Source of the DNA: Massilia sp. YIM B02763
GTDB lineage: Bacteria; Pseudomonadota; Gammaproteobacteria; Burkholderiales; Burkholderiaceae_D
DNA length: 64,000 nt
Reading direction: 5' to 3'
Assembly (NCBI RefSeq): GCF_030412015.1
Contig: NZ_JASNRD010000021.1
Coordinates: 1-64,000, forward strand
The position numbers were made by a program, and so were the translations under genes. This document shows positions 35,808-51,455 of this stretch, piece after piece (position 1 is the first letter of the stretch; each line of letters starts with the position of its first letter). Below the pieces are notes generated by a model. That model was not told where the DNA came from. It ran no database searches and worked only from the letters and a program-made list of their open reading frames with translations.

Positions 35808-35883
35808 GGGTCGTTAGCTCAGTTGGTAGAGCAGCGGACTTTTAATCCGTTGGTCGCAGGTTCGAATCCCGCACGGCCTACCA
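35808..35883 (+). tRNA. tRNA-Lys(UUU), copy 2, attachment site of the island
   Basis: This is a 76-nt tRNA with anticodon UUU and TATAAT at 35789-35794. Its last 46 nt are partly element-derived: the T arm reads GCAGG-TTCGAAT-CCCGC instead of the GCTGG-TTCGAGC-CCAGC of copies 1 and 3. The changed T stem pairs at four positions but leaves an A opposite C at its middle position (51:63 by standard numbering). The 5' half is native. The displaced native 3' end lies at 50900-50945. The mismatch may weaken the tRNA or be tolerated. Confidence 0.93.
35838..35883 (+). other. attL core, tRNA-Lys 3' end
   Basis: This 46-nt stretch matches 50900-50945 except for five T-arm positions. It is the left attachment site of element A and reconstitutes a full tRNA gene, the standard outcome for integrases that use tRNA 3' ends. 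Confidence 0.85.
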
Positions 35884-35895
35884 TGAATTACAAAG

Positions 35896-35923
35896 AAGCC
35901 CACGAATTTCGGTTCGTGGGCTT
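35896..35923 (+). terminator. element-borne terminator after tRNA-Lys 2
   Basis: An 11-bp stem AAGCCCACGAA/TTCGTGGGCTT with loop TTTCGG is followed by TTT. The same hairpin stands at 50958, at the left end of element B. It replaces the native tRNA terminator, now displaced to 59225. Confidence 0.9.
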
Positions 35924-36280
35924 TTTGCGTTCTGGTCACCCTCTGGTCGCTTCGAAAAAGGTCCGCCCCCCCCCCTGCCGGGAGTTTTTCCGCGTTGATT
36001 TCCTGCGCCGCCCTGCCTGTCGAGTACTGCCTGACGTTGATGACCGGACGGGCTTTGACAGCTAGGTCAGCGAGGAAGCTGACGGTCTAGTAGCCTGGTC
36101 AGGCGTAATTTACGCAACAAAGCTAATCAAACTGGAAACTAACAAAGTTCTTCCGCGCAATCTTCTCTCTTTAATATCCTTAAATGAAATAAAATTGCGC
36201 GAGAGCCCGTTTATTATAGAACCTATCTACTTTGAATTTACAAATCGTCTTTTAACATTCGCCTATAAATAATATTTTCC
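35924..36280. other. left-end noncoding stretch of element A
   Basis: No gene is seen. It holds a pair of CTGGTC half-sites (35931-35955) that recurs at the left end of B and near the right end of A. It also holds an IS903-like right inverted repeat (36107-36124) and a strongly AT-rich segment next to fdhA. Confidence 0.55.
36107..36124. mobile_element. IS903-like terminal repeat, orphan right end
   Basis: The sequence AATTTACGCAACAAAGCT resembles the right end GATTTATGCAACAAAGCC at 38272-38289. No transposase lies beside it. Together with the left end at 37518 it brackets fdhA, as the inner ends of a composite transposon would. Confidence 0.55.
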
Positions 36281-37420: not shown

Positions 37421-37517
37421 GATTATCCTTTCAGAACGAGGGTAAATTCATCGCAAATAGCGGCATTAGGGAAGAAAGGTATAACAAATTTCTTCACGAG
37501 TGCGCACTGTTGAAAGC

Positions 37518-38289
37518 GGCTTTGTTGCGTAAATCAGGACTAACCAGCGTGCAGCGCGTAAGTATGGCAGTCTGGCCAAACTACAGCACCGTCAGCAGGC
37601 GGCAAAAGACGCTGCAGGTGGCAATCGGCACTATGCCGACCACGACGGGCTTGCAATTGCTGGTGGACAGCACTGGCATCAAGATGCTGGGTGAAGGCGA
37701 GTGGAAGACGAAGAAGCACGGGGCAAACCATCGCCGCCAGTGGCGCAAGGTGCATCTCGGGATCGATGCGTCCACGCTCGAGATCCGGGCCATGGGAGTG
37801 ACCGATAACGGTATCGGCGACGCACCTGTCCTGCCAGCGCTGCTGAGCTAGATTCTGCTGACGAGCGCATTGCCAGCGTCAGTGGCAACGGTGCGTACGA
37901 GACGAAGGGCGTTAAAGGCATTGCATTGCGCACTGCGCATGTCATCATCCCGACCCGGAAGAACACCATGCCCTGGAAGGCAAACAACCGTGGTGCCGAT
38001 GCACATAACGACATCCTGCGAGTTACAAAAAGGCTGGGACGGGCAATCCGGAAGAGATGGAGCGGCTACCACCGGCGTAGCCTTGTTGAAACCAAGATGC
38101 GCTGTTTCAAGTTGCTGGGCGAACACGTCATGGCACGCGACTTCGAACGTCAGGTCGCCGAGCTACAAGTACGGGCTGCCATGCTGAACCGCCTCACCCG
38201 GCTGGGCACAACGGTTACGGTCCCAATGTTATAAAACGAACTACAAAGTAGCGTCCGCTCGGCCCTCGCTCGATTTATGCAACAAAGCC
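37518..38289 (+). mobile_element. IS903-like insertion sequence (IS5 family), internally deleted
   Basis: Left end GGCTTTGTTGCGTAAATC and right end GATTTATGCAACAAAGCC are inverted repeats of the IS903 group. The 772-bp length is short of the roughly 1.05 kb usual for the group; the first part of the transposase gene is missing. Confidence 0.8.
37561..38234 (+). pseudogene. IS5-family (IS903 group) transposase, truncated and frameshifted
   Basis: Two frames hold the remains. The first reads NYSTVSRRQKTLQVAIG then LLVDSTGIKMLGEGEWK, which includes the first catalytic Asp. It is cut by a stop at 37851. The second frame (from about 37926) reads LRTAHVIIPTRKNTMPWK and RSLVETKMRCFKLLGEHVMARD, which includes the catalytic Glu. 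The N-terminal third and a central part are lost, so no active transposase is made. Confidence 0.85.
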
Positions 38290-38655
38290 GTTTTACTCCA
38301 TAAACAGCCTCACCTTTACTTCAAAGAGCGGTGGTTCGCGTCGCAAGATCGGCAAGGCGTAACGCAACTATCAAACCATGTACTTACCTCCAGAGCAACA
38401 AGCGCCGTACACTGAGCATTGCGAACGGCCGGGTTCGGCCAAGAGCGGGAGTTCGTCGGATTACCCATCTGGTTGTATAAGTGTTGAACTTATGGCAGTC
38501 ACTAAAGTGTTGAGAAACCCAGTGTCGCCCTCTATATACTCTTTGCCACGTGCAGGAGGCGGCTTCGCCGCAAATGGTGGCGGTGCGGTCATCATTGCAT
38601 TTGGCTCATTGGAAAGTTGATAATTTGGTGGCTGTTTAACTACAGGAGATATCTC
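38290..38655. other. noncoding stretch between IS relic and monooxygenase gene
   Basis: I see no supported gene or clear repeat. It should carry the promoter of the small monooxygenase gene that follows. Confidence 0.4.
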
Positions 38656-38958
38656 ATGGTCAAACTTGCATTGTTCGTTCGTCTAGAAGCCAAGCCGGGT
38701 AAGGAGAAAGAAGTAGAGAACTTTCTGTTAAGTGGTCTTCCCCTAGTTCAGGCAGAGCCGGCTACTACAGCTTGGTTCGGCATCCGCCTAGGGCCATCAA
38801 CCTTTGGCATTTTTGACGCGTTTTCAGATGAAGCTGGGCGGCAAGCTCATCTTTCCGGCCAAGTCGCAGCGGCGCTTATGGAAAAAGCGGGGGAGTTATT
38901 TGCCGAGCCGCCGTCAATCGAAAAGGTTGACGTTCTTGCGGCAAAGCTGCCAGGCTAA
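38656..38958 (+). CDS. antibiotic biosynthesis monooxygenase (ABM)-domain protein
   Basis: This small protein of 100 residues has the dimeric ferredoxin-like ABM fold: LALFVRLEAKPGKEKEVENFL opens the first strand and helix, and FGIFDAFSDEAGRQAHLSG is the conserved second half. AGGAG stands 8 bases before the ATG at 38656; an upstream in-frame start is less likely. Family members act as cofactor-free monooxygenases or in stress responses; the substrate is unknown. It lies between IS relics, so it may be cargo. Confidence 0.82.
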   Translation: MVKLALFVRLEAKPGKEKEVENFLLSGLPLVQAEPATTAWFGIRLGPSTFGIFDAFSDEAGRQAHLSGQVAAALMEKAGELFAEPPSIEKVDVLAAKLPG

Positions 38959-38992
38959 GCAACCCCAGTAAGTCGCCCTGGCCGACGACTTA

Positions 38993-39221
38993 GAGCCTAT
39001 CCCAGTAGACCTGCTGAACGCCAGGCAATGACTCCACAAACGAGGTGAAGGCAGGCGAGATAGTTGCCTGCCTTCTTCGGCCAACGGATCAGCAGGCCAC
39101 GGAATCGATTCATCCAGCTGTGCGTGCGCTCGACGACCCAACGTCGGGCGCGAAATCCTGCATCCTTGTTCAGTTCTAAAGCTTCTTCATCGCGCGCTCT
39201 GAATGTAGGCAATGAAGCCAA
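38993..39221 (-). mobile_element. IS5-family (IS427-like) transposase 3' fragment
   Basis: The C-terminal transposase remnant reads RRWVVERTHSWMNRFRGLLIRW, carrying the catalytic Glu, followed by NYLACLHLVCGVIAWR. The IS end GAGCCTATCCCAGTAG starts at 38993. The 5' part has been replaced by an unrelated IS fragment. Confidence 0.82.
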
Positions 39222-39631
39222 GATCCTCGACCCATTGACGTACTTACCGGCAAAGCGCCGATCGCTACCTGCAGCGTCTTTTGCCTACGGCTGACCGTAC
39301 TGTAGTCCGGCACCGGCCAGTCGAGTCTAGCCAGGTGCAGCAGGCTTTGCATCATACCCATGGCCTGGCGCAGCGGCAAATTGAAGAGGCACTTGATGCT
39401 CAGGCAGAAATGGATCGCCTGCTCGCTGAACATCTGGCTGCGCCCGCGCTTGCCGTTTGGCTCGCCATGCCAGGCCATGTTCGGATCGAGCCAGATGAGC
39501 CGCGTGCCTTCAGTGCTTCGTTGTATGTTTTCCAGTTCGTGGTGCGGTATTTCTGAGGAGCCGGTTTATGCGCTCAGGCTACCAGATGTCCCGGCTCTAC
39601 CCTGGCCAGGGTCGATTTGTGCAACAAAGCC
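39176..39631 (-). mobile_element. IS903-like 5' fragment
   Basis: The outer end GATTTGTGCAACAAAGCC (39614-39631) and the N-terminal transposase part (MAWHGEPNGKRGRSQMFSEQ ... DWPVPDYSTVSRRQKTLQVA) are preserved. The rest is lost at the junction with the IS427-like fragment. Its insertion point lies just beyond the end of the CoiA-like fragment. Confidence 0.78.
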
Positions 39632-39643
39632 GGTCATGACCGT

Positions 39644-39901
39644 TCAGCCTGCCTTGACCGCCGCCTTAGCAACCAGCGTCTTGAGGAACACGTGCTCCGC
39701 GCTTTCTGGCGCAGTTGTGCATTCCCCCGCCTCGCATGCGAAAAAATTACCGAGCTTACTGATCTTCGGTATGGCTTGGCTATCGCAGCATGGCATTCGA
39801 AGATCAGCCATCTTATAGGTTTGCTTGACGTATTCCCATGCGATCAAATCGCAGTCGAACGCATAGACGTCGGCGTCACCTCTTCGAGCTCTAAGCGGCA
39901 A
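39644..39901 (-). pseudogene. CoiA-like protein, N-terminal fragment
   Basis: The reading frame of 85 residues contains ACEAGECTTAPESAEHVFLK and LRMPCCDSQAIPKISKLGN. This pattern resembles the N-terminal zinc-site region of CoiA-family and related nuclease-like proteins. Full relatives are much longer. The frame stops at 39644, just short of an IS903-like end at 39631, so the gene was probably cut by IS insertion. The identification is by pattern only. Confidence 0.5.
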
Positions 39902-40403
39902 AATTAATTTCCAGATTACCTATCCAATCCGCTCGTCTCGTTGGGCGAAGCTTTCCGAACCACTTAGACGGGTTGTACGGAGGATCGTAGCCTTCATCGT
40001 TCTGATGTGCAAGATGTGCAGAACCCCTGTCGGCTCTAGGATGCAGGGGCTACTGAACAGGTGTGCTGCGTGTGCAAAACATCACCTGGACTACGACATC
40101 GAAAAATCTGCTGGTTAGAGCCACCCAGATTGGACGTGGCACATCAAAAAAGGCCCATTTCGACCGGACTACGGAGTGCGCTGAATGCCCCCCGGTGATC
40201 TATCAAGTCCTTCCACCGTTTTTCCCAAGCTGTAAACGCTGTAAGCGCTTGTCGAGAATCGACCTCGCCGCGTCTGGTTCAACTGGCGACGGGATTCCAC
40301 GCCACCGCACTTTGCCCCAGCTGCCAACAAAGATCTCGCCCCAACCAGTGCGCAAGGTGTGCAGGCCCAACCTGTACGCCCTGCACAGTCATGCCAACAC
40401 ACC
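39902..40403. other. noncoding stretch upstream of integrase A module
   Basis: No gene of its own is supported. It contains the TGTGC repeat pairs, and its counterpart at 57.7-58.5 kb before integrase B has the same repeats. Confidence 0.5.
40006..40079. repeat. 9-bp iterated motif TGTGCNNNN, upstream of integrase A
   Basis: TGTGC occurs at 40006, 40015, 40062 and 40071, in two pairs each spaced exactly 9 bp; a degenerate pair follows at 40349/40358. The same motif forms triplets at 50661-50687 and in several clusters at 58079-58312. The position beside integrase genes and element ends suggests protein-binding arrays. Confidence 0.7.
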
Positions 40404-40697
40404 ATGAAAAATCACGAAGACAAGTCCCCCCTATTTTCCCTTGGCGACATTTACATCACCAAACGCGCAGACGCCGAGCTGGACGCTCGCGCCGTCACCT
40501 CGGCAACGCTACTGGAACGGTACGTTACCGGCGACTGGTCAAACCTGTCGGCTGAAGACATCAAGGCAAACCGCGCCGCTATCCATGATGGCGGACGTAT
40601 CCTCGCCTCGTACCGCATCGCGCCCACCGTCCGCATTTGGATCATCACCGAGGCCGACCGCGCCAGCACGACGATTCTGCTACCCGACGAATACTGA
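40404..40697 (+). CDS. small mobile-element protein of unknown function
   Basis: This 97-residue protein has the pattern DAELDARAVTSATLLERYVTGDWSNL followed by GGRILASYRI and IWIITEADRASTTILLPDEY. It matches a small family often found in integrative elements and plasmids, sometimes misnamed as a restriction subunit. The ATG at 40404 begins just before the conserved part. It precedes the integrase gene, and no biochemical role is known to me. Confidence 0.75.
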   Translation: MKNHEDKSPLFSLGDIYITKRADAELDARAVTSATLLERYVTGDWSNLSAEDIKANRAAIHDGGRILASYRIAPTVRIWIITEADRASTTILLPDEY

Positions 40698-40930
40698 CCC
40701 CTCAGCTGTTTCGCCGAATGGCACTGGCCCGCCGCCACTCCGACCGGAAATAGACCGGAGGCCACCCCGGCAGCGGAGCCGAAAAAGCGTGCGTTGTAAT
40801 GATCCACGCCCAGCCACAACCATTTGACCGTGAACGCCGCCGTTCCGGTCCGCTCCACGGATTCGAACTTCCCGGAACGCCTACCGCGCTCCGCATCTGC
40901 GCATCAACCCACCATCGAGAATCTAAATGT

Positions 40931-42115
40931 ATGAACAGACAATTTCGCTTCAACAAAAAACTTATCGATGCCCTCCCCCCGCACCCCGAGGACGCCAAGT
41001 CCAAGGAAAGCGAGTATTCCGATACCGAGGTCGCGGGACTGCGCATCATCGTCAACCGGCGTGGCCGCAAGTATTTCCTCTTCCGTTACTCCTTCGACGG
41101 AGCCAAGCGCAGCATGAAGCTGGGCGATTATCCGCAGATGGAAGTCACCGACGCCAGACACCGCGCGCTCGACTGTCGCCGTCAAGTCGCTACCGGGACG
41201 GACCCGCAGGCAGCGGCTGCAGCCGTAGCGGCATCACAACTGGCACTGCGTCGGTTCGTGATCGACGACTACCTGCCGCACGCTTATGCCACCAAACGTA
41301 GCGCCAAGGATGACGAGGGCCGGATGCGCAACATCCTGCCGGAGTTTGGCGACTTGCAACTGTCGCAGATAAGCAGCCATACCATTCAACAGTTCCATGA
41401 CCGGTTGCGCGTGCAGAAGTGTGCAGCCACTGCGAACCGCCATCTTGCACTGTTAAAGCGATGCTTTAACCTCGCCATCATCTGGGGCAAGCTCGACGGA
41501 CCGAATCCGGTACGGGGAATACGCATGCATCAGGAGAACAACCAGCGGCAGCGCTACTTATCAGACGGCGAGCTGCGCTCGTTTTTGAGGGCACTTGACG
41601 AGGAACCAAACCGCCCGCTGGCAGACGCGCTGCGCTTCTTACTCATGACCGGCGCGCGCCGTAACGAGGCGCTGATGGCACGGTGGGATTCGATTGACCT
41701 CGACAAAGGTCAGTGGTTCCTGCCGAACACGAAGAGTGGCAAGAGCAGATTTATCTTGCTGAACGACGCTGCCATCGAGTTACTCCGCCAGTGTGGTCGG
41801 CCTGCTGGCCACGTTTATGTGTTCCCAGGTAAGAATGTGGGCGAGCCCATCTGCAACCCGTACAAAGGCTTCAAGCGGGTACTGAAGCGGGCGGGCATTA
41901 GGGATCTGCGGATTCACGACCTGCGACACAGCTTCGCCAGCTTGGCGATCAACAACGGGGCGACGCTCTATGAGGTGCAGCACCTGCTCGGCCACGCCGA
42001 TAGCAAGACCTCGCAGCGATACGCGCACATGGCGTCGGACAACCTGCGCAAGGCCAGCGCGCAAGTAGCCGCAGTGATCGCACAGGCCCGGCCACAAGCC
42101 GAGTCCGTGGCGTAA
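40931..42115 (+). CDS. tyrosine recombinase integrase of element A
   Basis: This site-specific recombinase of 394 residues should insert the element at tRNA-Lys. The N-terminal arm-binding domain (DUF4102-like: LPPHPEDAK, SEYSDTEVAGLRIIVNRRG, YSFDGAKRSMKLGDYP) is followed by a core-binding SAM-like domain and the catalytic domain. The catalytic residues are R in TGARRNEALMARW (about 243), H and R in HDLRHSFAS (about 330-333), H in LLGHADSKT and Tyr in QRYAHM. The ATG at 40931 is preceded by a conserved leader shared with integrase B. A strong terminator follows. Confidence 0.94.
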   Translation: MNRQFRFNKKLIDALPPHPEDAKSKESEYSDTEVAGLRIIVNRRGRKYFLFRYSFDGAKRSMKLGDYPQMEVTDARHRALDCRRQVATGTDPQAAAAAVAASQLALRRFVIDDYLPHAYATKRSAKDDEGRMRNILPEFGDLQLSQISSHTIQQFHDRLRVQKCAATANRHLALLKRCFNLAIIWGKLDGPNPVRGIRMHQENNQRQRYLSDGELRSFLRALDEEPNRPLADALRFLLMTGARRNEALMARWDSIDLDKGQWFLPNTKSGKSRFILLNDAAIELLRQCGRPAGHVYVFPGKNVGEPICNPYKGFKRVLKRAGIRDLRIHDLRHSFASLAINNGATLYEVQHLLGHADSKTSQRYAHMASDNLRKASAQVAAVIAQARPQAESVA

Positions 42116-42120
42116 ACGAA

Positions 42121-42149
42121 AAATCGCTCAAGAGTGACTTGAGCGATTT
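42121..42149 (+). terminator. integrase A terminator
   Basis: A 12-bp stem AAATCGCTCAAG/CTTGAGCGATTT with a 5-nt loop is followed by a T run. It lies five bases after the integrase stop and can also end the convergent DUF927 gene. Confidence 0.93.
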
Positions 42150-42174
42150 TTTTTTACTCCGTTCGGAGTGGGCA

Positions 42175-43869
42175 TTAAGCTGCGATCGGGACTCCATCTG
42201 GCCAGATGCGTTTGGTAACGATGGCGTAGCCACGGAAGCGATTGTTGCAGAAGCGGTGGACTCGTCGTCCAGGCTGTTCCGTCTTGAGTGCACCCAACCC
42301 GGCCAGCTCATCGAGAATCCGCGTCGCGTCGTCACCGAGTTCGCGGTTCAACACATCGACGGAAATGACCGTGATGTCGTTGTCTACGAATGCGACGGCC
42401 TCGCAGTTCAAGTCGGGTCTACCCGGATGAAGCTCGTCGATGCGATCGGTGAGAAACTGACGAATACGCGCTAACGAGCTGGCACGCGTACTCCACCATA
42501 GTTCAGTCACCATCTTGAGTGCTGCGTTGATTTTTTCGTCCGCGTTCTCATCGAATACACCTGCCATTACCGCGATCCGTCCGGCTACAACTGCCCCGGC
42601 GAGCCGCTTGACGACGCGGCGCTCACCGGATTCGCAGTCGGCGGGCAACAGGACGTTCTCGATGTCTGGGGCCATCGCCAGGAGCTCGTTTAATTCCTCC
42701 GGATTGTCGCAGCAATACTGGATGATTGCCTCACCAGCCGTACCGTACTGCTCGCTGCAGGCACGCTTGAGGTGGCTGGTCGCAGCATTGAACGAACCGA
42801 ACTCTCCGTAGTTGTTCAGCACCCCGACATCGGTAATAGGGATGTCGATAGCACGGTCTGCCTGACCACCATGCATTTTCCGCCCGCTCGCCGCGATGGT
42901 GTCAGCGATCGTCACTTCCGCCGACACGATTACATTCGACTGCCAGCGTTCGCGGTCCGCCGCTTCGCCCGTCGATTTCATGCGATGCTTGCCTTCGCCG
43001 GACGCCATCATATAGCACGCCTGATGGACGATCGCCGCACTGCTTTCAGTCAGTTCGTCGAGAAGCGTCGGCAGCGGGCTTTGCTTGCCGAGCAATGCCT
43101 CGAAGCCGTTAAGGGTGCCGTTGAACCGTGCGATAAATGCCGGGTCCTCGACCTGCGCACCTTGCGCGGGATCGACTCCATTGCCGAAGATACTGGCGGC
43201 GCATTGTTCCGCGAGCGTCTTTCCGAGCCCCTTCTGTCCGCAGAAGTTAAACATGCTAGAACTCAGGCCGAGGCGGTCCAGGAAGATGCTTGCGATGGCG
43301 ATACAGGTCATCGCGAGGATGATCGGGTTTTCGACGATCAACACGCCGATCTTCGCGCGCCATTCGTCGAGTGTACCGCGCGAACACATCGCGCCCGCGC
43401 CAGAGGGGTCGATCCAGAAGTCGTCCGGATCGTTGTCATCGCTGGCGATCAGCTTGCGCCCGGTAAAGAAAGCCTGATGATCTGCGATCCAGCGAGTGTT
43501 CGTGACCAGTTCGCGCGTCGAGAGCTTGGCAACCGCAGCGGCGGTGGCCATCAGGTAGTCCGACAACAGCTTAGGTTTGTAGATGATCGTCCCGCGCGTG
43601 CTGAGGATTTCGCTGATCGCCTTGGGCGTGCCGAGCGTCCCGTTGTCAACACGCACCATGCAGGGAAGTACGCCCTCGACGAACGGGGTAATCGCCACCG
43701 CACACGAGGTGGTGTTCGTTGCGGGATCGAACACGAAGCGCTCTACGTATGCTTCGCCATGCATGACAACAGTGAATCCTGCGTCTCCTCGATCGAACTG
43801 CACGGAGCCGTTCTGGACAATGTATTTGTCGACCGTGCTCGGCGCGGCGGTATTGCTAGGCTTATTCAT
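42175..43869 (-). CDS. DUF927 domain-containing element replication/helicase-like protein
   Basis: This 564-residue cytoplasmic protein has a P-loop in FCGQKGLGKTLAEQCA (Walker A GQKGLGKT near residue 218). A helicase-like segment before it reads NPIILAMTCIAIASIFLDRLG. This is the DUF927 family, found in primase-helicase proteins of integrative elements and phage satellites. A primase domain is not evident at the N-terminus. It is followed 9 bp away by the alpA gene on the same strand, so the two form the element's regulation/replication operon. Activity is inferred. Confidence 0.82.
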   Translation of the reverse strand: MNKPSNTAAPSTVDKYIVQNGSVQFDRGDAGFTVVMHGEAYVERFVFDPATNTTSCAVAITPFVEGVLPCMVRVDNGTLGTPKAISEILSTRGTIIYKPKLLSDYLMATAAAVAKLSTRELVTNTRWIADHQAFFTGRKLIASDDNDPDDFWIDPSGAGAMCSRGTLDEWRAKIGVLIVENPIILAMTCIAIASIFLDRLGLSSSMFNFCGQKGLGKTLAEQCAASIFGNGVDPAQGAQVEDPAFIARFNGTLNGFEALLGKQSPLPTLLDELTESSAAIVHQACYMMASGEGKHRMKSTGEAADRERWQSNVIVSAEVTIADTIAASGRKMHGGQADRAIDIPITDVGVLNNYGEFGSFNAATSHLKRACSEQYGTAGEAIIQYCCDNPEELNELLAMAPDIENVLLPADCESGERRVVKRLAGAVVAGRIAVMAGVFDENADEKINAALKMVTELWWSTRASSLARIRQFLTDRIDELHPGRPDLNCEAVAFVDNDITVISVDVLNRELGDDATRILDELAGLGALKTEQPGRRVHRFCNNRFRGYAIVTKRIWPDGVPIAA

Positions 43870-43878
43870 AGTTAGCTC

Positions 43879-44067
43879 TTAGATGTTCTTATTCGTTTCC
43901 ACCCATGCACGCACGTCTTCGCATGCGTACCGCACCGCTCGGCCCACCTTGACGAATGGGATTTGCGGACCCAGCCCGGTAGAGCGGGCTTTCTCTAGGG
44001 TCTGCGGCGCGATGCGCAGCAACGATGCCACTTCCTTCGTTGTTAGATAACTGCTCGGTTCGTACAT
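43879..44067 (-). CDS. AlpA-family helix-turn-helix regulator/excisionase
   Basis: This 62-residue DNA-binding protein of the AlpA/MerR-like group opens YLTTKEVASLLRIAPQTLEKARSTG, a winged helix-turn-helix. FVKVGRAVRYACEDVRAWVE, the usual second half of the fold, follows. Such proteins activate integrase or act as excisionases in P4-like satellites. Its gene precedes DUF927. It is a candidate binder of the 9-bp TGTGC arrays, though there is no direct evidence. Confidence 0.88.
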   Translation of the reverse strand: MYEPSSYLTTKEVASLLRIAPQTLEKARSTGLGPQIPFVKVGRAVRYACEDVRAWVETNKNI

Positions 44068-44400
44068 TGGATGCTCCTTTAGGTTGCGTTAAGAAAATTC
44101 AGCAAGCCCATATTAAGCGGATGAGCTAACGAAGAAAAGTCTTGAAAAACAGTGACTTACAACAATAAACATAAGCAAATAGAAGGCGGCGGATGAGGGT
44201 TTTACCGGCCTCCAAGACCGTCAACCGATTTCGCCCTGGTAACTCGTTCACGCACCGAAAAATCGGCGGCATGCCGATACTTCAGCCGGGCAAGGCGATT
44301 CCCGCCTCTTTTAAGCCCGGATTCACTTCCTTTTTTCGCTGTCCACCGAGTGAAAATATTTTTGGAATGTCGTAGTCTTGCGACATTCCAGTACCTTCGA
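44068..44400. other. noncoding stretch with an inverted repeat
   Basis: No gene is supported between alpA and the second integrase. It includes the inverted repeat GGAATGTCG (44364-44372) with CGACATTCC (44381-44389). That lies just past the integrase-2 stop but without a clear T run on the minus strand, so it may be a weak terminator or a recombination site. Confidence 0.5.
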
Positions 44401-45585
44401 TCACACCAACTCGCCAACCAAGTTGTTCGCATCGATCAATGCTTGGTCCTGCAGGTGTGCATAGCGTGCAGCCGTGACGTTCGGTGACGAGTGGCGCAGC
44501 GCCTTGGAAACGGTGAACAGGGGTACGCCCGCGTTGACAGCAATCGATGCCCAGGTGCGGCGCAGGTCGTGGATCGTGAAGCCCTCGATGCCCGCGCTCG
44601 CACAAATGCGCTCGAACACCTTTGCGGGCCTCGTCATGGGCTTGGCCGGGTCCTTGCCTGGAAACAGATAACCGGCCTTCCGTTTGCCGATTACCACGCG
44701 CAGCAGTTCCACCGCCGTTGAGCTGAGGCAGATATGTGCCGACTTGCCCGACTTCGTCATCGGCAAATGCCACGTGCAGCTTGCCAGATCGACGTCATGC
44801 ACCTTGGCGGCGAGCGCTTCGCCGAGCCGCGCCGCAGTCAGAAAGAGCAGCATGAACAGCGACGCCGCAGCCCGGTTGCTCTCGTGATCGCAAGCCTCCT
44901 TGAACGCGGCACGCTCGGCCGTATCCAGCACTCGGGTACGGATGTTCGCCTCTGCGAGCGGACGGATGTGCTTGGCGGGGCTCTTCGTATGCAGGTCATT
45001 CTCGACGGCGTAACGGAATATCGCCTTCAGCAAGGCGAGGTAGCGATTGACGGTCGCGGGCGACAGGTGCTCGCGCTCGCTCAGCATGTCGAGGAAGGCC
45101 ACGATGTTCGACGACCTGATGGCAGCCAGCGGCAGGTGTCCGAATTCGCTGGACAGCCAACGCTCGAATTTCTGCACGTCGTCCTTGATGCTGCGCTTAC
45201 GAGCTTTTACAGCCGGGTAGTAATGGTCGGACCAGAGCTGAGAGAACGTGATGCCGACGCGGCTCGGTGCGCGCGGATCGATGCCCTGTGCAGCCTGGAG
45301 GCGTGCAGAGGTGCAGGCGAGACGTGCCTGTTCGACCGTGAAGTGGGCGCTGTAATCCCCGAGCGCCAGGGATAGGCGCTGCTTGTGAAGAACCGGGCGA
45401 GCGCGGAAGTTGATGCGACCACTGCGATACAGGACCGCGATCAGCCCGACGCATTTCGTGTCGTAGCAGTCGAGTTGATCCTTGTCGCTGTAGGCAAGGA
45501 ACGAAGCCAAGGCCGTATTGAGGCTGGCCTTCGTGAAGCAGAACTTGGTCGAAAAATTGTGGTTACTTGTTTTGTCGGGCGGCAT
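44401..45585 (-). CDS. second tyrosine recombinase integrase
   Basis: This 394-residue recombinase is unrelated in detail to integrase A. An N-terminal arm domain (LALGDYSAHFTVEQARLACTSARL) and a SAM-like core precede the catalytic domain. R lies in TAARLGEALAAKV, H and R in HDLRRTWAS, H in ALRHSSPN and Tyr in AARYAHL. Its presence inside element A suggests a nested element or a captured recombinase. No second pair of attachment sites was found around it. Confidence 0.92.
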   Translation of the reverse strand: MPPDKTSNHNFSTKFCFTKASLNTALASFLAYSDKDQLDCYDTKCVGLIAVLYRSGRINFRARPVLHKQRLSLALGDYSAHFTVEQARLACTSARLQAAQGIDPRAPSRVGITFSQLWSDHYYPAVKARKRSIKDDVQKFERWLSSEFGHLPLAAIRSSNIVAFLDMLSEREHLSPATVNRYLALLKAIFRYAVENDLHTKSPAKHIRPLAEANIRTRVLDTAERAAFKEACDHESNRAAASLFMLLFLTAARLGEALAAKVHDVDLASCTWHLPMTKSGKSAHICLSSTAVELLRVVIGKRKAGYLFPGKDPAKPMTRPAKVFERICASAGIEGFTIHDLRRTWASIAVNAGVPLFTVSKALRHSSPNVTAARYAHLQDQALIDANNLVGELV

Positions 45586-45789
45586 GTTGATAGTCCTTTA
45601 CTAGGACTACCGGGATCAATCATAACGATTCGCCATCGAGAGCGCATCCCTGACCGTCAAGCTTGGTCAAGGAACCCGACCACAGCATTAGGAAGCGCTC
45701 GCCCGTGAGACACTTATTTGCTTCGCCTGAAGGGTAAATCACGCATAGAGCCGATCAACATCCGACGAGCCAACTGGGCGATCACCTAT
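45586..45789. other. noncoding stretch between integrase 2 and the RT gene
   Basis: There are 204 bp with no supported gene. It should contain the integrase-2 promoter and the end of the reverse transcriptase transcript. Confidence 0.4.
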
Positions 45790-46839
45790 TTAGTCCCAAG
45801 GTGCAGGTTCCGAGTTGGAAATGCCAACGGCTTGCCGGCCTACCTCTTGTGTACGTTGCAGGCCCTGAGCAGCATCTTCAATCATTTTCCGTAACTTTTT
45901 TAAGCGCGCCTTTAAGGGTGCCCCTTCGGAAGGATGAAAGCTGTTCAACAGACCAACACGGCTCGATACCGTTAAAAGCTCTTTATGAAGTGCCTCATCA
46001 TGCTCGCCAAAGGCAGCTCTGGCCTCAAGCTGAAAGACGGACGTGCGAATGCCTCGGCGCATTTCCTTGGGCAAAGCAACTCTGACGTTATGCACGAGCT
46101 TCGTTGTTACGATTCGCGCCCCTGCTGTGTGCACCTCATGCTTCTGGCGCTTGGGTTGAACGCCAGCGCTGCGGAGCATCGCATAGACACTGGAGATAAT
46201 TTCCGACTTCTCGCTATTGGTAATGCGACGCTTGCATGAAACGCTAATATCATCTACATAGCGGGTGTACTGGTAGCCGCGACGCTGGAACTGCTTGTAG
46301 AGTTGGGGCTCTCTGGCCCAAAAGACCAGGTTAGCCAAGTAGGAACTGGTAACGGCCCCCTGCGGCACGCCGTCATCCTTCACCGTGAGCAGTGTCAGGA
46401 GATTTGCGACCTCCTCAGAAAACCCAAACAGGCTGCACCACATCGCCTTCACAAGGGTAGACGAAATTGTCGGGAAAAAGTTGGCAATGTCTTCGCCAAT
46501 TGTAATTTTTGCGCCTACGTGGGCTTCAGCATTTTTACGAGGACTGCGTCCCTTAAGACTTCCGTTCAAGTAATCCGGGTACTCGACACGGCTTAGAATG
46601 CGATCTTTGATGCGTCTCTGAGCATATTTCAGGCGCGGATAAGCGTCGAAGGTCTGGCGCTTGCTTCCGTCTTTTTTTATTTCTTCCGCTGCCAGTCGAT
46701 ATGATTGATTTGCTGCCGCAGCGATGCGCTTTAACCATCGCTCAGGGATTCCCAGTGCCATTTCGAGCGCAGCGATGCTATGGATTGGCTCACACGGATA
46801 ATACGGAATACTCTTGTCACTATTCGGGGGCTTTTTCAT
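45790..46839 (-). CDS. retron-type reverse transcriptase
   Basis: This RNA-dependent DNA polymerase of 349 residues matches the retron clade by motifs. NAEAH (103-107) fits the retron NAxxH box. DIANFF (117-122) holds the first catalytic Asp. GVPQGAVTS fits domain 4, and YVDD (194-197) is the active site. The VTG-like box of retrons reads VTTKLVHN (244-251), with Thr in place of Gly. No maturase or intron endonuclease domain follows, which argues against a group II intron. It overlaps the upstream XRE gene by 20 bases. Retrons are anti-phage systems that need a structured ncRNA; a candidate lies at 47400-47640. Confidence 0.87.
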   Translation of the reverse strand: MKKPPNSDKSIPYYPCEPIHSIAALEMALGIPERWLKRIAAAANQSYRLAAEEIKKDGSKRQTFDAYPRLKYAQRRIKDRILSRVEYPDYLNGSLKGRSPRKNAEAHVGAKITIGEDIANFFPTISSTLVKAMWCSLFGFSEEVANLLTLLTVKDDGVPQGAVTSSYLANLVFWAREPQLYKQFQRRGYQYTRYVDDISVSCKRRITNSEKSEIISSVYAMLRSAGVQPKRQKHEVHTAGARIVTTKLVHNVRVALPKEMRRGIRTSVFQLEARAAFGEHDEALHKELLTVSSRVGLLNSFHPSEGAPLKARLKKLRKMIEDAAQGLQRTQEVGRQAVGISNSEPAPWD

Positions 46840-47119
46840 CCAAAAGCTCCAAAGCAGTCAATGCTAACTGTCCCGCAAGCTCCTTGTTAATGCCTGCAAG
46901 TTCGCCCTTCTCAGCAGCAAGGAAAAATAAAATCTCGACAGGAATCTTTAGTGCAGCTGCAATCTTCTCGACCGTAGATATGGTTGGGTCGCGCTTGGAG
47001 TTCTCAAGCATCGAAAGATAGGAAACCGAACACCCGGCCAGCTTCGCAAGAGCCTCTTGAGAAAGCTTTCGGCGTTGGCGACTAGTCTGGATCGCTTTGC
47101 CAAGGTTCATGATATTCAA
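46820..47119 (-). CDS. XRE-family HTH protein of the retron-like operon
   Basis: This 99-residue protein has an HTH_3 domain: LGKAIQTSRQRRKLSQEALAKLAGCSVSYLSMLE and TISTVEKIAAALKIPVEILF. A helical C-terminus of about 30 residues follows. Its stop lies inside the RT start region, so the pair is co-translated. Small HTH proteins accompany several described retron types, where they may be regulators or toxins. An internal Met at residue 4 is an alternative start. Confidence 0.85.
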   Translation of the reverse strand: MNIMNLGKAIQTSRQRRKLSQEALAKLAGCSVSYLSMLENSKRDPTISTVEKIAAALKIPVEILFFLAAEKGELAGINKELAGQLALTALELLDEKAPE

Positions 47120-47162
47120 TCAAAAAATTAATGGGCTTGTTGTGCAGGAGCTCGGCTAAACA

Positions 47163-47393
47163 TCACATCAGGTCTCGAATGTTGCTAACCAGACGAAGGA
47201 AGTCTGCAATTACTTGAAACGCACGATAGCAAGCTACCGTTCTGCGCTCCGATCCTTCCTGTCGGCTGACAATCTCCAATTCAGCGATGACGGTGTTCAA
47301 CTCAGCAACTGCACGCATGTCGAGCTGGCTATGATACGTATCGCGCAGGTTTTTCAACGTGCTGATACTTGTTTCGAGAGTATGTGGCTGCAT
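47163..47393 (-). CDS. small helical protein, first gene of the retron-like operon
   Basis: This 76-residue predicted all-helical protein (LETSISTLKNLRDTYHS, AVAELNTVIAELEIVS, FQVIADFLRLVSNIRD) has no domain I recognise. AAGGA stands 8 bases before the ATG. It ends 43 bp before the XRE gene on the same strand, so it may be the third component of the retron system, either effector or antitoxin. Function is unknown. Confidence 0.6.
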   Translation of the reverse strand: MQPHTLETSISTLKNLRDTYHSQLDMRAVAELNTVIAELEIVSRQEGSERRTVACYRAFQVIADFLRLVSNIRDLM

Positions 47394-47399
47394 AATAAG

Positions 47400-47640
47400 C
47401 GTCCTTCAATCCGGGCGAAATTGCCCTGCCCCGTTAGCAAATAAGCCGGAAGGTGCCAGCCCGACATAACAAGCCCATTACCAGTCGAAACCCTTCGAGC
47501 GCTGCCCCACCGTTCGTTCGCTGCACATGGCAACTGGCTCGCGGTCGGTTAGCACTCGTCGCTCCGGGCAATGCGGCCCGTTGCGGGGAATTTAGCCTAC
47601 TTCTGGAAGTGGGCAATCCTGAAAACGTCCAGGATCGTTA
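47400..47640 (-). ncRNA. candidate retron msr-msd ncRNA (unproven)
   Basis: This region sits immediately upstream of the operon, where retron RNAs usually lie, and carries no convincing gene. Read on the minus strand it starts with two hairpins: ATCCTG with CAGGAT (47617-47636) and GCCCACTTC with GAAGTAGGC (47594-47613). It also has short complementary ends, ATTGCCC near 47608-47614 and GGGCAAT near 47414-47420, which could act as a1/a2. The long msd stem is not obvious by eye, so this call is tentative. Confidence 0.35.
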
Positions 47641-47757
47641 AGCAGCTTTTTGCTATCAAACTTCGGGTACTGAAGTACACATACATCGAACATCATCCGA
47701 GCGGTATCACTCGGCCTGAAGCTATTAGAACACAGCCGTAATGCAGAAATCAACAAG

Positions 47758-47780
47758 AATTTTCACTGTCAGTGAAAATT
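47758..47780. promoter_or_regulatory. perfect 23-bp palindrome, candidate operator
   Basis: Arms AATTTTCACTG (47758-47768) and CAGTGAAAATT (47770-47780) flank one central base. Its position about 370 bp upstream of the retron-like operon suggests an operator for an HTH protein or a recombination site. No adjacent promoter was assigned. Confidence 0.55.
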
Positions 47781-48393
47781 TACGCACATACGGTCGTGAC
47801 ACAGTGCATACGTAGTGGCTCGGAACGTCCGTCAGGTGCGCTACTTGCGACCGAAGTAAGAAAGCCCTTTGACGTCGCACTTAGCGCTCTTGCTAGGTGC
47901 GAGCCGCGTAGCGCGTGCTCGCCAAGCGCAGCCATTGCTGCTTGTCATAGCATGGCACGCCATGCGTCTTCCGCGCACCTCGGCCACGCTTGCTACGCAG
48001 CGCTATGCGAGTCTCGCACCGACTGCGTAAGCCTTTTGAGGATTTGCGTCAGTGACGGGACCGAGAAAAGCGAGTTCCTTGACCAGGAACTTGCTTCAAG
48101 CCATTAACACTCAGCGCAGGACGAAGAGCCGTCTTCAAGGTGGTACCCAGCGAGCCAAACCGCTATTGTAGGTATCGCAAATAATATCGGGAGACGTAGC
48201 CATTCGATAATGTGGCCACCGGATGGACACTTATCTCTACACCGCACTAAATGCCGAGCGCTCGCAGATACAGCTGCTTTGTGCTAAAGCGTCGGGAGCC
48301 TGCTCCGTAGACATGCAAGGCACCGACTGCACTTAGCCACATTCGAAATTACAGCGCTTCTAGTCATATATTATTTATTTGCAACAAATCATG
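47781..48393. other. noncoding stretch rich in inverted repeats
   Basis: No reading frame here looks like a protein gene. Several hairpins can be drawn: GCACTTAGC with GCTAGGTGC near 47878-47904, GCATGGC with GCCATGC near 47951-47966, and a 12-bp stem at 48068-48079 with 48085-48096. The stretch may encode structured RNA or be decayed sequence. Confidence 0.45.
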
Positions 48394-48426
48394 AAGCCCC
48401 TTGCCCGCAATCCGGACAAGGGGCTT
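48394..48426 (+). terminator. terminator-like hairpin
   Basis: Stem AAGCCCCTTG with CAAGGGGCTT around a 13-nt loop is followed by TTCT. It lies 35 bp before a small gene and may end a transcript from the upstream noncoding region. Confidence 0.55.
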
Positions 48427-48460
48427 TTCTATTTCAGCGTGTATCAAGGAACTCTAATCA

Positions 48461-48628
48461 ATGAAGAAATTTATCACTCCTCCGAACTCGCAATGGTCGA
48501 GCAACAAGATCAACGCATCGCCCCGGACAACTAGGCCGAACAATTACCCGACCATGCTGCCTGACATCAAGGAAACATTTCTGCCGAGCAGTCTGGACCT
48601 GACGTTCACGCTGAGCTTCCGGCGCTAG
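48461..48628 (+). CDS. small hypothetical protein, 55 residues
   Basis: An open frame from ATG 48461 encodes a basic, Asn/Ser/Pro-rich protein opening MKKFITPPNSQWSSNKIN and ending LDLTFTLSFRR. AAGGA stands about 9 bases upstream. It precedes three co-oriented genes, and the leader style resembles theirs. No family is recognised, so coding status is plausible but unproven. Confidence 0.45.
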   Translation: MKKFITPPNSQWSSNKINASPRTTRPNNYPTMLPDIKETFLPSSLDLTFTLSFRR

Positions 48629-48747
48629 AACTGTGGAACGGTGAGCGTGTATGCCGCCGCTACCGAGCATCAATGAAAGCTCCATACCGGTAAACGGTGC
48701 GGGGCTTTTCTTATCCCAACCAGTTAAACGACCTGTAGAGAAATCAA

Positions 48748-49308
48748 ATGAACCAAGCAGAAACAACAAACATCGGCGACGTGCCCGCCGAAACGACCGG
48801 AGCGACCGGCCTCCGGGGCTGCTGGCTGCTCAAGTCCGCCAAGGCTATGAAGCTGGGCAAACATGCCGAAGGCGGAATCCACTATCAAATCCTTACCGAC
48901 AACCAGCGTCATGACCCGTCGTTCAAGATCGTGGGTAACGAGGGCGGCGGCTACTTCAGCAAGGAAGTCATCGCCTTCGGTAACGTCGAATCCTGCCTTA
49001 CCGCGCATCCGCAAGATCAGCCCTTCCCCTCCAAATTGTTGCAGACGGCGTTCACCGGCCGGTCCAGCAATAACGCGGGATTCCTCGCCGCTATCCTGCG
49101 CGCCGAGGGCTTGCTGGCTCTCGCTCCCGACACGGAAGGCCGCCACGTTATGTCCGGCGATTGGGCCGCATGGAAAGCGTCCGTGCTCGCCGAGCCGGGG
49201 CGGCTGCTCGAATCAGAGCCAGTAAGTAAGGAAGAGAAGGCCGAAGATAAGGAAGCCTCTACGCCGTCCGCTGACGAAAAAGATCCACCTCGGCGCGTGA
49301 AGAAATAG
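48748..49308 (+). CDS. hypothetical protein of the element A right-end cluster
   Basis: This 186-residue soluble protein has a mixed alpha/beta core (LRGCWLLKSAKAMKLGKHAEGGIHYQIL, GGGYFSKEVIAFGNVESCL) and a charged C-terminal tail rich in Glu, Lys and Pro (about 150-186). I do not recognise the family. It is followed 28 bp later by a nucleotidyltransferase-fold gene. The tail looks disordered and could bind nucleic acid or a partner. Confidence 0.7.
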   Translation: MNQAETTNIGDVPAETTGATGLRGCWLLKSAKAMKLGKHAEGGIHYQILTDNQRHDPSFKIVGNEGGGYFSKEVIAFGNVESCLTAHPQDQPFPSKLLQTAFTGRSSNNAGFLAAILRAEGLLALAPDTEGRHVMSGDWAAWKASVLAEPGRLLESEPVSKEEKAEDKEASTPSADEKDPPRRVKK

Positions 49309-49336
49309 CAAACACAATCACTCAAGGACCGACCTC

Positions 49337-49891
49337 ATGACCAGCAACTACTCAACAGCGTGGGAAGCGGGGCGGCTCGTGCGTTACCTGATGCGCGCGC
49401 CGAACGTCTACATCTTCGGAGGCCTTCTAAAGCACATCGCCTGCCCCACCGTACACCCCGAATTCACCGATATAGACCTCATCGCAACCGACAGCCGGGA
49501 ACTGGTTCGCATTCAGGACACCTTCGACTACGTGTTCAGGGAGCTACCCAGGATCGGGAACCGACCACGCTACTTCATCGGAAAGTCACAACGAACCGAC
49601 AAGGTAGTCCAACTCGTCCTAATGCGCTCCCACGTCCAGGCAATGCAGTTCGCAGTCGAGGGTCCGCAGTACGACATCGACCGCGCAGCGTTTGGCAACC
49701 GCCGGTTCTACTTCGATGAGGCCATCGGAGAAGTAGCCATCCGGCATGCCATTAGGACGAAGCGAGCAAGCCGCATCACCGCACCCCGCAACCTGACGCA
49801 CTACGCGCCGCACCGGCCGCAGATCGAACAGCGCCACAAGCTCAAGCTGATGCGCAAGGGCTTCACCGTCATCGACTGCCCCGCCCCGTAA
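49337..49891 (+). CDS. nucleotidyltransferase-fold protein
   Basis: This 184-residue protein has the GG-x(n)-D-x-D pattern of polymerase-beta-like nucleotidyltransferases: VYIFGGLLKH (Gly28-Gly29) and FTDIDLIA (Asp45 and Asp47). The third acidic residue is not certain; VVQLVLMRSH may be the matching strand. The basic C-terminus (HRPQIEQRHKLKLMRKGF) could bind RNA or DNA. Relatives act in tRNA repair, antibiotic modification or toxin-antitoxin pairs. Its neighbours are unknown proteins, so its target is open. Confidence 0.6.
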   Translation: MTSNYSTAWEAGRLVRYLMRAPNVYIFGGLLKHIACPTVHPEFTDIDLIATDSRELVRIQDTFDYVFRELPRIGNRPRYFIGKSQRTDKVVQLVLMRSHVQAMQFAVEGPQYDIDRAAFGNRRFYFDEAIGEVAIRHAIRTKRASRITAPRNLTHYAPHRPQIEQRHKLKLMRKGFTVIDCPAP

Positions 49892-49911
49892 CCAACCCAG
49901 AAAGGCCACCC

Positions 49912-50649
49912 ATGACCGTCACGATCTACGTAACAAAGGAAGCGATGGCGACCGTCCACAAAATCAAGGATCTCGACTACTACGACCGCTGCTGCTTGGC
50001 GGACAACGAAGCAACTGACCTCACCCACAAGGAAGGCTACTATCTCAAGACCACCCACAAGCTCAATCTCGCCCCGTTGCCGGAAGGTGCCCTACTCGTC
50101 GCCAGCCTGTGCACCGGCGGCGCCGACTACTCGGAGCGCGTGAGCATTCCCGCCAACCTACGCGGCTGTATCTTTGAGAAGGCCCCCAATCTTCCCCCGC
50201 GCTACAAGGAGATCATCGAATACTGGTCCGGCGAACCGCTGAACACGAATGCGGGCGGCGCTGTCTACTACCAGAACCCGATGAACGCCTACGTGGTCGA
50301 CCTGTCCCTTCTTGATGCGGCGAACGCGGCAGGCAATTACGGCGGCAATGTGGAAGGGATGGACGCCCTATTGTCGGAAGGGGTCGTCGTGCACATCGCG
50401 GGGCTAGGAAAGGTCCTCAGCAACGCTCTAGATGAAGCGTTTGTCGAGGTCGAAATCCCGCTGGATGACGCGATGCTCGCCCTGGACAACCCCGAGTTCC
50501 TGACTGGTCAGCCCTACGTGCAATCGATGGGCCAGCGCTCCGAACGCATCTTCTTGAAAGTGTCGGACATACGCCACTCCCCCGACCCCGATCAGATTTT
50601 CGTGGACGCGCTGCGCTACGAAGAACTCGATTACGGTTTCTATTACTGA
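49912..50649 (+). CDS. hypothetical protein, last gene of the element A right-end cluster
   Basis: This 245-residue acidic protein has no signal peptide or membrane segment. Segments YYLKTTHKLNLAPLPEGALLVASLCTGG and FVEVEIPLDDAMLALDNPEF look like regular secondary structure. I recognise no family. It starts 20 bp after the nucleotidyltransferase-fold gene, so the two are likely one operon. The nearest downstream features are the TGTGC triplet and the right attachment site. Confidence 0.7.
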   Translation: MTVTIYVTKEAMATVHKIKDLDYYDRCCLADNEATDLTHKEGYYLKTTHKLNLAPLPEGALLVASLCTGGADYSERVSIPANLRGCIFEKAPNLPPRYKEIIEYWSGEPLNTNAGGAVYYQNPMNAYVVDLSLLDAANAAGNYGGNVEGMDALLSEGVVVHIAGLGKVLSNALDEAFVEVEIPLDDAMLALDNPEFLTGQPYVQSMGQRSERIFLKVSDIRHSPDPDQIFVDALRYEELDYGFYY

Positions 50650-50660
50650 CTCCATAGCGG

Positions 50661-50687
50661 TGTGCGAGATGTGCAGAGTGTGCTAGC
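50661..50687. repeat. 9-bp iterated motif TGTGCNNNN, near attR of element A
   Basis: TGTGC occurs at 50661, 50670 and 50679, exactly 9 bp apart. It lies 12 bp after the last gene of element A and about 210 bp before the displaced tRNA 3' end. Confidence 0.7.
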
Positions 50688-50899
50688 CACCCTCCTGCCT
50701 ATTGTGGAAAGGGCATTCTGGTCGCTCTCTGGTCGGGGCCACAGCCAATACGATCAAGCTGAATCCATTAGCGGCAAGTTGTCGCTGACGCGCACAAGAG
50801 TAAGGCCATTCATCCATGATCCTTGTGCAGCAAGGAGATACCTCGTGCAATCGGATAGAATGGCTGGCAAGTTATCTCGCAATCGCGGCTGCTTCTGGC

Positions 50900-50945
50900 A
50901 CTTTTAATCCGTTGGTCGCTGGTTCGAGCCCAGCACGGCCTACCA
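50900..50945 (+). other. attR: displaced tRNA-Lys 3' end
   Basis: These 46 nt are identical to the last 46 nt of tRNA-Lys copies 1 and 3 (anticodon loop through CCA). They have no 5' half, so they are not a functional tRNA. This marks the A/B junction and is the strongest evidence for element A's right end. Confidence 0.9.
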
Positions 50946-50957
50946 AGTATTTCCAAG

Positions 50958-50985
50958 AAGCCCACGAATTTCGGTTCGTGGGCTT
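50958..50985 (+). terminator. element B left-end terminator
   Basis: The stem is the same 11-bp AAGCCCACGAA/TTCGTGGGCTT as at 35896, followed by TTT. Confidence 0.88.
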
Positions 50986-51455
50986 TTTGCTTTTCTGGTC
51001 CCTCTCTGGTCGCTTCGGAAAGATCCCGCCGCTCCTCCTCTCTAGGTCAGTAACTATTTCTCTCACTAGGCAGGTCTAAGTCTGACTCGGCACAGGAAAA
51101 ATGGCCCACTTTAGCGAGCTGACCAATAGCTCTGAATGGGGTCCGGCGAGCTATCCGAGCTTTCCCTCCTCTTTCCCCGGCTCAAACCCTTAAAAAGCTC
51201 GCGCCTGCCGCCACTTTGTGTCTTTTCCGACCTGGGCCAAGCGGAGGTTGTATCGCACACCAGGGCGCCACATGTTATTAGTTGCACCAAGCTTTGCAGA
51301 TAAGTAACATGATGAACAGCGCGCATAAAACCAGTCCAGGTGACTTGCAGTGCCATTGCGCGAACTGCCATCGCTTCCTTCACAGATTATTAAAGACGAG
51401 CGCGCAGGCCGACAATGATAGTGGCGCAACGGAAACTAGCAATTGAGGGTAATAA
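50986..51455. other. left-end noncoding stretch of element B
   Basis: It contains the paired CTGGTC half-sites (50994-51018). The rest has no convincing gene; it should hold the promoter of the restriction enzyme gene. Confidence 0.5.

What the first reader, a model, noticed from the sequence alone, without database searches (positions are those of the whole stretch)
45790..47640. Retron-like operon with a divergent VTG box and HTH plus small helical partner
The RT has NAxxH and YVDD in the retron arrangement, no intron-type domains, and an upstream XRE gene overlapping it by 20 bases, preceded by a 76-residue helical protein. The usual VTG reads VTT. HTH-containing retron types are known, but the three-gene order with this small protein is one I cannot match with certainty. 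It sits on a mobile element, where retrons act as defence cargo.
Basis: partly seen in the sequence, partly recalled or inferred. Interest (0 to 1): 0.8.

Follow-up and report, generated by a model that had tools for sequence, protein, structure and literature searches.

The report
Type VI retron, leader-locked small gene
This is a type VI retron, a known kind of bacterial reverse-transcriptase system thought to defend against phages, and comparing relatives shows that the RNA in front of its small gene pairs with that gene and with the stretch just after it, which suggests how a possible toxin is kept silent.

Summary
The operon is real and lies on the minus strand of a tRNA-Lys-associated island in a Massilia-like genome. 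The 'VTG' column reads TTK, not VTT, and lysine there is shared by the local subclade.

About 90-60 nt before SP, two adjacent segments pair with a site inside the SP ORF (helix B) and with the gap just after the SP stop (helix A). RNAalifold finds both unprompted; compensatory changes include synonymous SP codons. Own-locus matches beat or tie swapped ones in 9 to 12 of 14 relatives, by test.

I infer that the leader locks SP translation and that reverse transcription acts on this lock. No classical a1/a2 repeat was found; msDNA, toxicity and defence are untested. New member of a known kind, with an RNA architecture for which I found no report in the library searched.

The parts
47758..47780 (-). 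perfect 23-bp palindrome (arms of 11 around one base), probable operator of the HTH protein
   Evidence: 11-nt arms; core TTCACTGWCAGTGAA occurs once in the window with up to 2 mismatches allowed, expected 0.01; same core in L003, L031, L032, L008, L022, a shorter one in L042, other or no clear palindrome in the rest of the 26 loci
47724..47753 (-). predicted sigma-70 promoter TTGATT-18-TCTAAT
   Evidence: of the 9 loci the script puts a like promoter 8-10 bases before hairpin H1 in 7; in L009 and L011 it chose other sites
47697..47714 (-). leader hairpin H1 (7-bp stem), msr-like first hairpin
   Evidence: (46 of 49 cells paired, reached by 0 of 1000 shuffles)
47394..47725 (-). conserved non-coding leader, candidate retron RNA (msr-msd not delimited)
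   Evidence: 98.2% identical to L003 versus 69.8% further upstream; fold z -3.61
47468..47480 (-). helix A, 5' arm
47454..47467 (-). helix B, 5' arm
47163..47393 (-). SP gene, 76 aa, PADLOC SP_VI; amphipathic C-terminal helix
   Evidence: (2.4e-24)
47316..47330 (-). helix B, 3' arm inside the SP ORF (about codons 22-26)
47310..47314 (-). helix C, 5' arm (SP ORF)
47142..47146 (-). helix C, 3' arm (SP-HTH gap)
47129..47141 (-). helix A, 3' arm, just after the SP stop
46820..47110 (-). HTH (XRE/HTH_3) gene, 96 aa from the likely ATG, PADLOC HTH_VI
45790..46839 (-). retron-type reverse transcriptase, 349 aa, NAEAH, YVDD, TTK in the VTG column
35838..50993 (.). probable mobile island between tRNA-Lys and a repeat of its 3' end; core 39.6-50.66 kb shared with two Massilia genomes, left part variable; integrases 40799-42115 and 44401-45585, DUF927 gene 42175-43869
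   Evidence: the relatives too have tRNA-Lys about 5 kb beyond the shared core

Best explanation
A type VI retron expressed as one transcript: leader RNA, SP, HTH, RT. Shown: the three proteins, the palindrome by a predicted promoter, the conserved leader, and the co-evolving pairing of the leader with the SP ORF (helix B) and the post-stop gap (helix A), closed by a small helix C into a three-way junction. Inferred, in falling order of confidence: (1) the HTH protein represses its own operon at the palindrome. (2) The leader-SP junction keeps SP mRNA untranslated, much as fold-back RNA silences type I toxins such as hok (recalled). (3) SP is the effector, probably a membrane-active or growth-stopping helical peptide. 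(4) The RT uses the leader as template; its cDNA would cover or remove the arms that pair with SP, so that reverse transcription, or a phage change to it, frees SP for translation and stops the cell before phage release. The sign of step 4 is the least certain; I put steps 2 and 4 together at about 0.4.
For: Type VI. Same SP-HTH-RT order on plasmids of Pseudomonas, Alteromonas and Psychrobacter and, by tblastn with all three window proteins, in L031, L032, L042, L043, L005. RNA: RNAalifold on 8 loci finds helices A, B and C unprompted. Cells paired: A 92 of 94, B 107 of 112, C 38 of 40, reached by 2, 0 and 1 of 1000 dealt shuffles; sliding the partner by 1-3 columns leaves at most 47, 42 and 23. 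Pairs with a change on both sides: A 3 of 12, B 5 of 14, C 3 of 5. In B, synonymous third-position changes CAG/CAA and GAC/GAT are matched in the leader (few independent events, since the changed loci are kin). Leader shuffles (200 per locus): A at p<=0.05 in 14 of 15 SP-family-A loci, B in 11 of 15. Cross-locus swaps, 14 loci: own leader ranks first or ties against its own post-stop site in 11 of 14 rows and 12 of 14 columns; for the ORF site 9 of 14 and 9 of 14; own means 27.3 and 28.1 versus 18.1 and 17.6 for other loci (the windows were set). Of 315 mechanical ORFs of the window only SP reaches both of its own scores. SP third codon positions are kept in 74 of 77 versus 293 of 349 in the RT. 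Whole RNA folds with z -4.56.
Against: The region that is reverse transcribed is not known: no a1/a2 pairing (own mean 13.4 vs other loci 12.7, and no excess in two further windows), no Rfam msr hit, no conserved AGC branch site that I could see by eye. L020 lacks helix A, and L043, L011, L044 and L046 have helix B that is not significant alone. In the phage branch, shuffles support A in 0 of 11 and B in 1 of 11 loci; the swap test supports B in 5 of 6, two of which share the same arms, and does not support A. RNAduplex swap energies were uninformative. The pairing structure tested was derived from the same alignment, which holds kin. The SP start codon and ribosome site lie in the loop of B, not in a helix, so blocking would have to be indirect. 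A ribosome moving through SP would open B and C. The amphipathic helix beats shuffles at p<=0.05 in 12 of 26 SPs, and SP has no structural match. No toxicity, msDNA or phage data.
Confidence: 0.55

Rival explanations
1. Ordinary tripartite retron toxin-antitoxin: SP (or HTH) protein is held inactive by the RT-msDNA complex, and the RNA pairing only shapes or processes the primary transcript, for example as an RNase III substrate that separates the retron RNA from the mRNA.
For: This is the stated mode for studied retrons (passages of PMC12409349, and PMC12948488). A long double helix just before and after SP would suit RNase III processing. The junction is conserved whatever its use.
Against: Processing needs no pairing with an internal site of the SP ORF; helix B targets codons inside SP, at about +54 to +74 in family A and about +17 to +24 in the five supported phage-branch loci, which fits mRNA targeting better.
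Confidence: 0.25
2. Reverse sign: the leader, or its cDNA, keeps SP off, and loss of the cDNA through phage nucleases or DNA modification turns SP on.
For: Loss or change of msDNA is the trigger in several retrons (passages). The present data do not fix the sign.
Against: cDNA copied from the leader arms has the same sense as the SP sites, so it cannot pair with SP mRNA; it can only mask the repressing arms. cDNA copied from the SP sites themselves would be antisense, but no such template region is shown.
Confidence: 0.15
3. The complementarity merely reflects coding and leader conservation or common descent.
For: Several loci are close kin and share arms; helix B is weak on its own in 4 of 15 loci.
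Against: L009, L011, L045, L046 and L047 have arms unlike the window's that remain complementary at one or both sites; synonymous changes are compensated.
Confidence: 0.04

Closest known systems
Type VI retrons (classification of Mestre et al. 2020, cited in PMC8541194; the paper itself is not held)
   Same: RT_VI, HTH_VI and SP_VI all matched, same gene order
   Different: no known difference in gene content; here the leader-SP pairing is described, and the local RT subclade has K in the VTG column
Phage-borne type VI retrons of P2-like phages and Mu-like MuM16-1 (PMC8541194, passages; L016-L019, L021, L022, L024-L028)
   Same: small protein, DNA-binding protein, RT; a leader segment complementary to the SP ORF in 5 of 6 tested
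   Different: RT branch separated with 100/100 support (one unclassified row, L023, lies inside it), SP of other sequence apart from an amphipathic helix, helix A not shown
Type V retrons (PADLOC RT_V; L033 best model RT_V; L034 assumed alike from the tree)
   Same: RT close to the window's (229 vs 212 bits, RT_VI vs RT_V); small ORF before the RT; weak leader pairing of the same layout
   Different: no HTH gene hit
hok/sok type I toxin-antitoxin (passage of PMC12409349; fold-back of hok mRNA recalled)
   Same: small toxic ORF silenced by RNA pairing (if the inference holds)
   Different: here the silencing arm is in the same leader and next to a reverse transcriptase
DRT2 defence reverse transcriptases (abstract in the listing)
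   Same: reverse transcription of a neighbouring non-coding RNA controls an effector ORF
   Different: here the effector ORF exists in the genome as an ordinary gene

Membership tests
type VI retron | RT of the type VI group | tested here: met
   RT_VI best of 83 PADLOC models matched, 229.1 bits; RT_V second, 211.9
type VI retron | HTH gene before the RT | tested here: met
   HTH_VI 2.7e-27, 20-bp overlap with the RT
type VI retron | small protein gene first in the operon | tested here: met
   SP_VI 2.4e-24 over the full length
retron | NAXXH in region X and YXDD core, no intron domains (PMC6868368, passages) | tested here: met
retron | usual, not defining: VTG at the start of region Y (14 of 16 validated retron RTs per PMC6868368) | tested here: not met
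   TTK in the window; xTK in L031, L032, L042, L043, L005, L008. Two of 16 validated RTs also vary, so this does not exclude membership.
retron | complementary 5' and 3' ends (a1/a2) and a priming G in the leader RNA | tested here: inconclusive
   no own-locus excess; depends on a predicted transcription start. Se72, validated, also lacks an apparent priming G (PMC6868368)
retron | production of branched msDNA | not testable with these tools
   needs DNA isolation
anti-phage defence system | lowers plating of some phage | not testable with these tools
   needs plaque assays

The most novel reading that the evidence does not exclude
Type VI retrons (and perhaps type V) are RNA-locked toxin switches: a two-site antisense segment in the retron leader pairs with the SP ORF and its 3' flank, and reverse transcription of that segment unlocks translation, so the cDNA works by base pairing on an mRNA rather than as part of a protein-msDNA complex; the RNA starts at a hairpin and lacks a1/a2, so priming would differ from the classical retron.
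Probability: 0.35. Interest if true: 0.8.

Novelty: new member of a known kind. Interest (0 to 1): 0.55.

Why it matters
Type VI is a retron type for which I found no mechanism in the library searched. A co-evolving pairing between leader and effector ORF gives a direct hypothesis for how the effector is controlled, says which base pairs to break and re-pair, and suggests that reverse transcription can act on an mRNA. If general, it would join retrons with RNA-regulated toxins.

Tried and rejected
Viral contig scans with the RT and with SP gave no relatives. The genome-contig scan gave two near copies and one remote RT. SP_VI model: 3 of 399 genomes of the order and 2 of 398 of the phylum, own genome counted each time. 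Not used for the RNA tests: L010 and L012 (cold-shock/Se72 effector by annotation), L013, L014, L015 and L023 (no SP-HTH-RT order annotated or seen by me; L023's RT later fell inside the phage branch and was not followed up), L004 and L035-L041 (remote RTs, neighbours not examined). L002 was left out of the RNA tests as a near copy; L003 was used but not in the swap test, which also used 6 of the 11 phage-branch loci. RNAduplex swap energies did not separate own from other loci. Rfam found no msr (only sub-threshold matches to unrelated families). An alternative pairing of the helix A 5' arm with upstream leader is, by eye, only partly kept in kin, so I do not claim it. Foldseek on the SP model: 0 matches at E<=0.001. 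My first left edge for the island (39.79 kb) was only the end of the fetched stretches; moved it to about 39.63 kb and showed tRNA-Lys further out. Literature searches: (all 10). The phrase 'type VI retron' gave one paper. From memory only, no call: a 2025 preprint title on reverse-transcribed ssDNA derepressing translation of a retron antiviral protein; I could not find or check it (0 papers), do not know its retron type for certain, and it may anticipate the mechanism above.

Full report
1. What is there. The operon lies on the minus strand: SP 47393-47163 (76 aa), HTH 47110-46820 (96 aa from the likely ATG; TTG at 47119 is also possible), RT 46839-45790 (349 aa). The HTH and RT genes overlap by 20 bases. 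NAEAH and YVDD are present. Aligned with 47 other RT rows (some of them copies of the same loci), the VTG column reads TTK; K in that column is shared by L031, L032, L042, L043, L005 and L008 and the near copies, while the other rows keep the G except L046. Pfam finds only RVT_1 in the RT and HTH_3-type domains in the regulator.

2. What kind it is. PADLOC models: RT_VI 1.5e-68 (RT_V 3.8e-63 second), HTH_VI 2.7e-27, SP_VI 2.4e-24. I could not read the classification paper; passages of PMC8541194 describe type VI retrons as RT with a DNA-binding protein and a small auxiliary protein, in P2-like phages and a Mu-like one. The same order occurs on plasmids of Pseudomonas, Alteromonas and Psychrobacter. 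With the window RT, matches were found in 12 of 62 genomes of the genus (E<=1e-20; many at 30-35% identity, neighbours mostly not examined), 3 of 245 of the family (E<=1e-55) and 6 of 369 of the class (E<=1e-50), the own genome counted each time. The phage branch is in 99 of 5426 E. coli genomes.

3. Tree. In a 41-row tree the window RT groups with SP-HTH-RT loci: 100/96 for nine rows, 82/94 for sixteen rows, one of which (L047) has no HTH hit. The phage type VI branch is separate at 100/100, with one unclassified row (L023) inside it; RTs of the type V and Se72-like kind lie nearer the window's than the phage branch does. For the window-type RTs the RT_VI and RT_V models score close together, while for the phage RT L016 RT_VI gives 345.5 bits and no RT_V match at E<=1e-30 is listed. 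Long branches make deep placement unsure.

4. Island. Window 39.63-50.66 kb is shared with two Massilia genomes (L002/L049 and L003/L048, 91-98%). The window has tRNA-Lys at 35808-35883 and a copy of its 3' end at 50900-50993 (90%); in both relatives a tRNA-Lys lies about 5 kb beyond the shared core. The probable island is therefore 35.84-50.99 kb with a variable left part. It carries two integrases and a DUF927 gene. Next door are an Mrr-like gene and a Septu-like pair.

5. The leader. Between the window and L003 the 332 nt before SP are 98.2% identical, SP 97.0%, the 52-nt SP-HTH gap 100%, HTH 95.9%, RT 93.0%, promoter and operator 82.4%, and the intergenic DNA further up 69.8%. SP third codon positions are kept in 74 of 77, RT in 293 of 349. 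A perfect palindrome sits just upstream of a sigma-70-like promoter. In 7 of the 9 loci the promoter script puts the -10 box 8-10 bases before hairpin H1; in L009 and L011 it chose other sites. This suggests autorepression by HTH and an RNA that begins at a hairpin.

6. Pairing with SP. In ten of ten SP-family-A loci examined first, helices of the same layout joining the leader to the SP ORF and to the gap after its stop were among the three best-scoring (in L043 and L011 they are short). RNAalifold on eight loci, given no hint, returned helices A, B and C; over its whole structure 38 of 85 pairs show at least one double change. Cells paired: A 92 of 94, B 107 of 112, C 38 of 40, H1 46 of 49; dealt shuffles reaching this: 2, 0, 1 and 0 of 1000; partner slides leave at most 47, 42, 23 and 22. 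The eight rows include the near copy L003, relatedness inflates such counts, and the structure came from the same alignment. In helix B, synonymous changes in the SP ORF are matched by leader changes. Per-locus leader shuffles give A at p<=0.05 in 14 of 15 and B in 11 of 15, without correction for many tests. Swapping leaders among 14 loci: own mean 27.3 vs 18.1 for A and 28.1 vs 17.6 for B (windows chosen). In the window, one of 315 mechanical ORFs, SP, reaches both scores.

7. Limits. In the phage branch B is supported by the swap test in 5 of 6 (two of these five share the same arms), A is not, and single-locus shuffles support B in 1 of 11 and A in 0 of 11. L020 lacks A. Two loci of the type V kind (L033, L034) show the layout weakly (no shuffle test run). 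No a1/a2 pairing and no Rfam msr, so the template is not located. SP has an amphipathic C-terminal helix by moment that beats shuffles in 12 of 26 loci, a three-helix model, and no structural match.

8. How it may work. Shown: proteins, gene order, leader conservation, palindrome, co-evolving pairing. Inferred: HTH autorepression; the three-way junction silences SP; reverse transcription of the leader arms unlocks it; SP stops the infected cell. Studied retrons hold a toxin in an RT-msDNA complex (passages); here an RNA-level control appears at least as likely. The direction of control is not settled by my data.

9. Novelty. The retron is a new member of a known kind. I found no report of the leader-SP architecture in ten full-text searches of the open library, which lacks most subscription papers and most preprints; from memory a 2025 preprint may describe translational derepression by retron ssDNA.

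Noticed in passing
window 51456-52379 and 52894-55430 (+): Mrr-like restriction gene (PADLOC PDC-S02, 9.7e-43) and a Septu-like two-gene system (PDC-M01A/B, 1.9e-204 and 2.2e-99) directly beside the retron island: a small defence cluster.
   Followed up: partly
window 32217, 35808, 62961 and 50900-50993: three tRNA-Lys genes and a fourth partial copy: repeated integration at the same tRNA.
   Followed up: partly
window 40807-41106 and 58423-58722: 300-bp repeat, 87%, overlapping the start of the integrase gene 40799-42115.
   Followed up: no
L047 (locus 1172-2421): SP followed by RT without an HTH hit; one leader segment matches both the ORF site and the post-stop site.
   Followed up: partly
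L033, L034: loci of the type V kind without HTH show a weak leader pairing of the same layout.
   Followed up: partly
L023: RT inside the phage type VI branch with a small lysine-rich ORF before it and no HTH seen in its translation; not followed up.
   Followed up: no
window 47468-47480: the helix A 5' arm can instead pair with upstream leader in the leader-only fold; a possible switch, by eye only partly kept in relatives.
   Followed up: partly
RT column VTG, window and L031, L032, L042, L043, L005, L008: lysine replaces the glycine of VTG throughout this RT subclade, in the region said to bind the cognate msr (PMC6868368, passage).
   Followed up: partly
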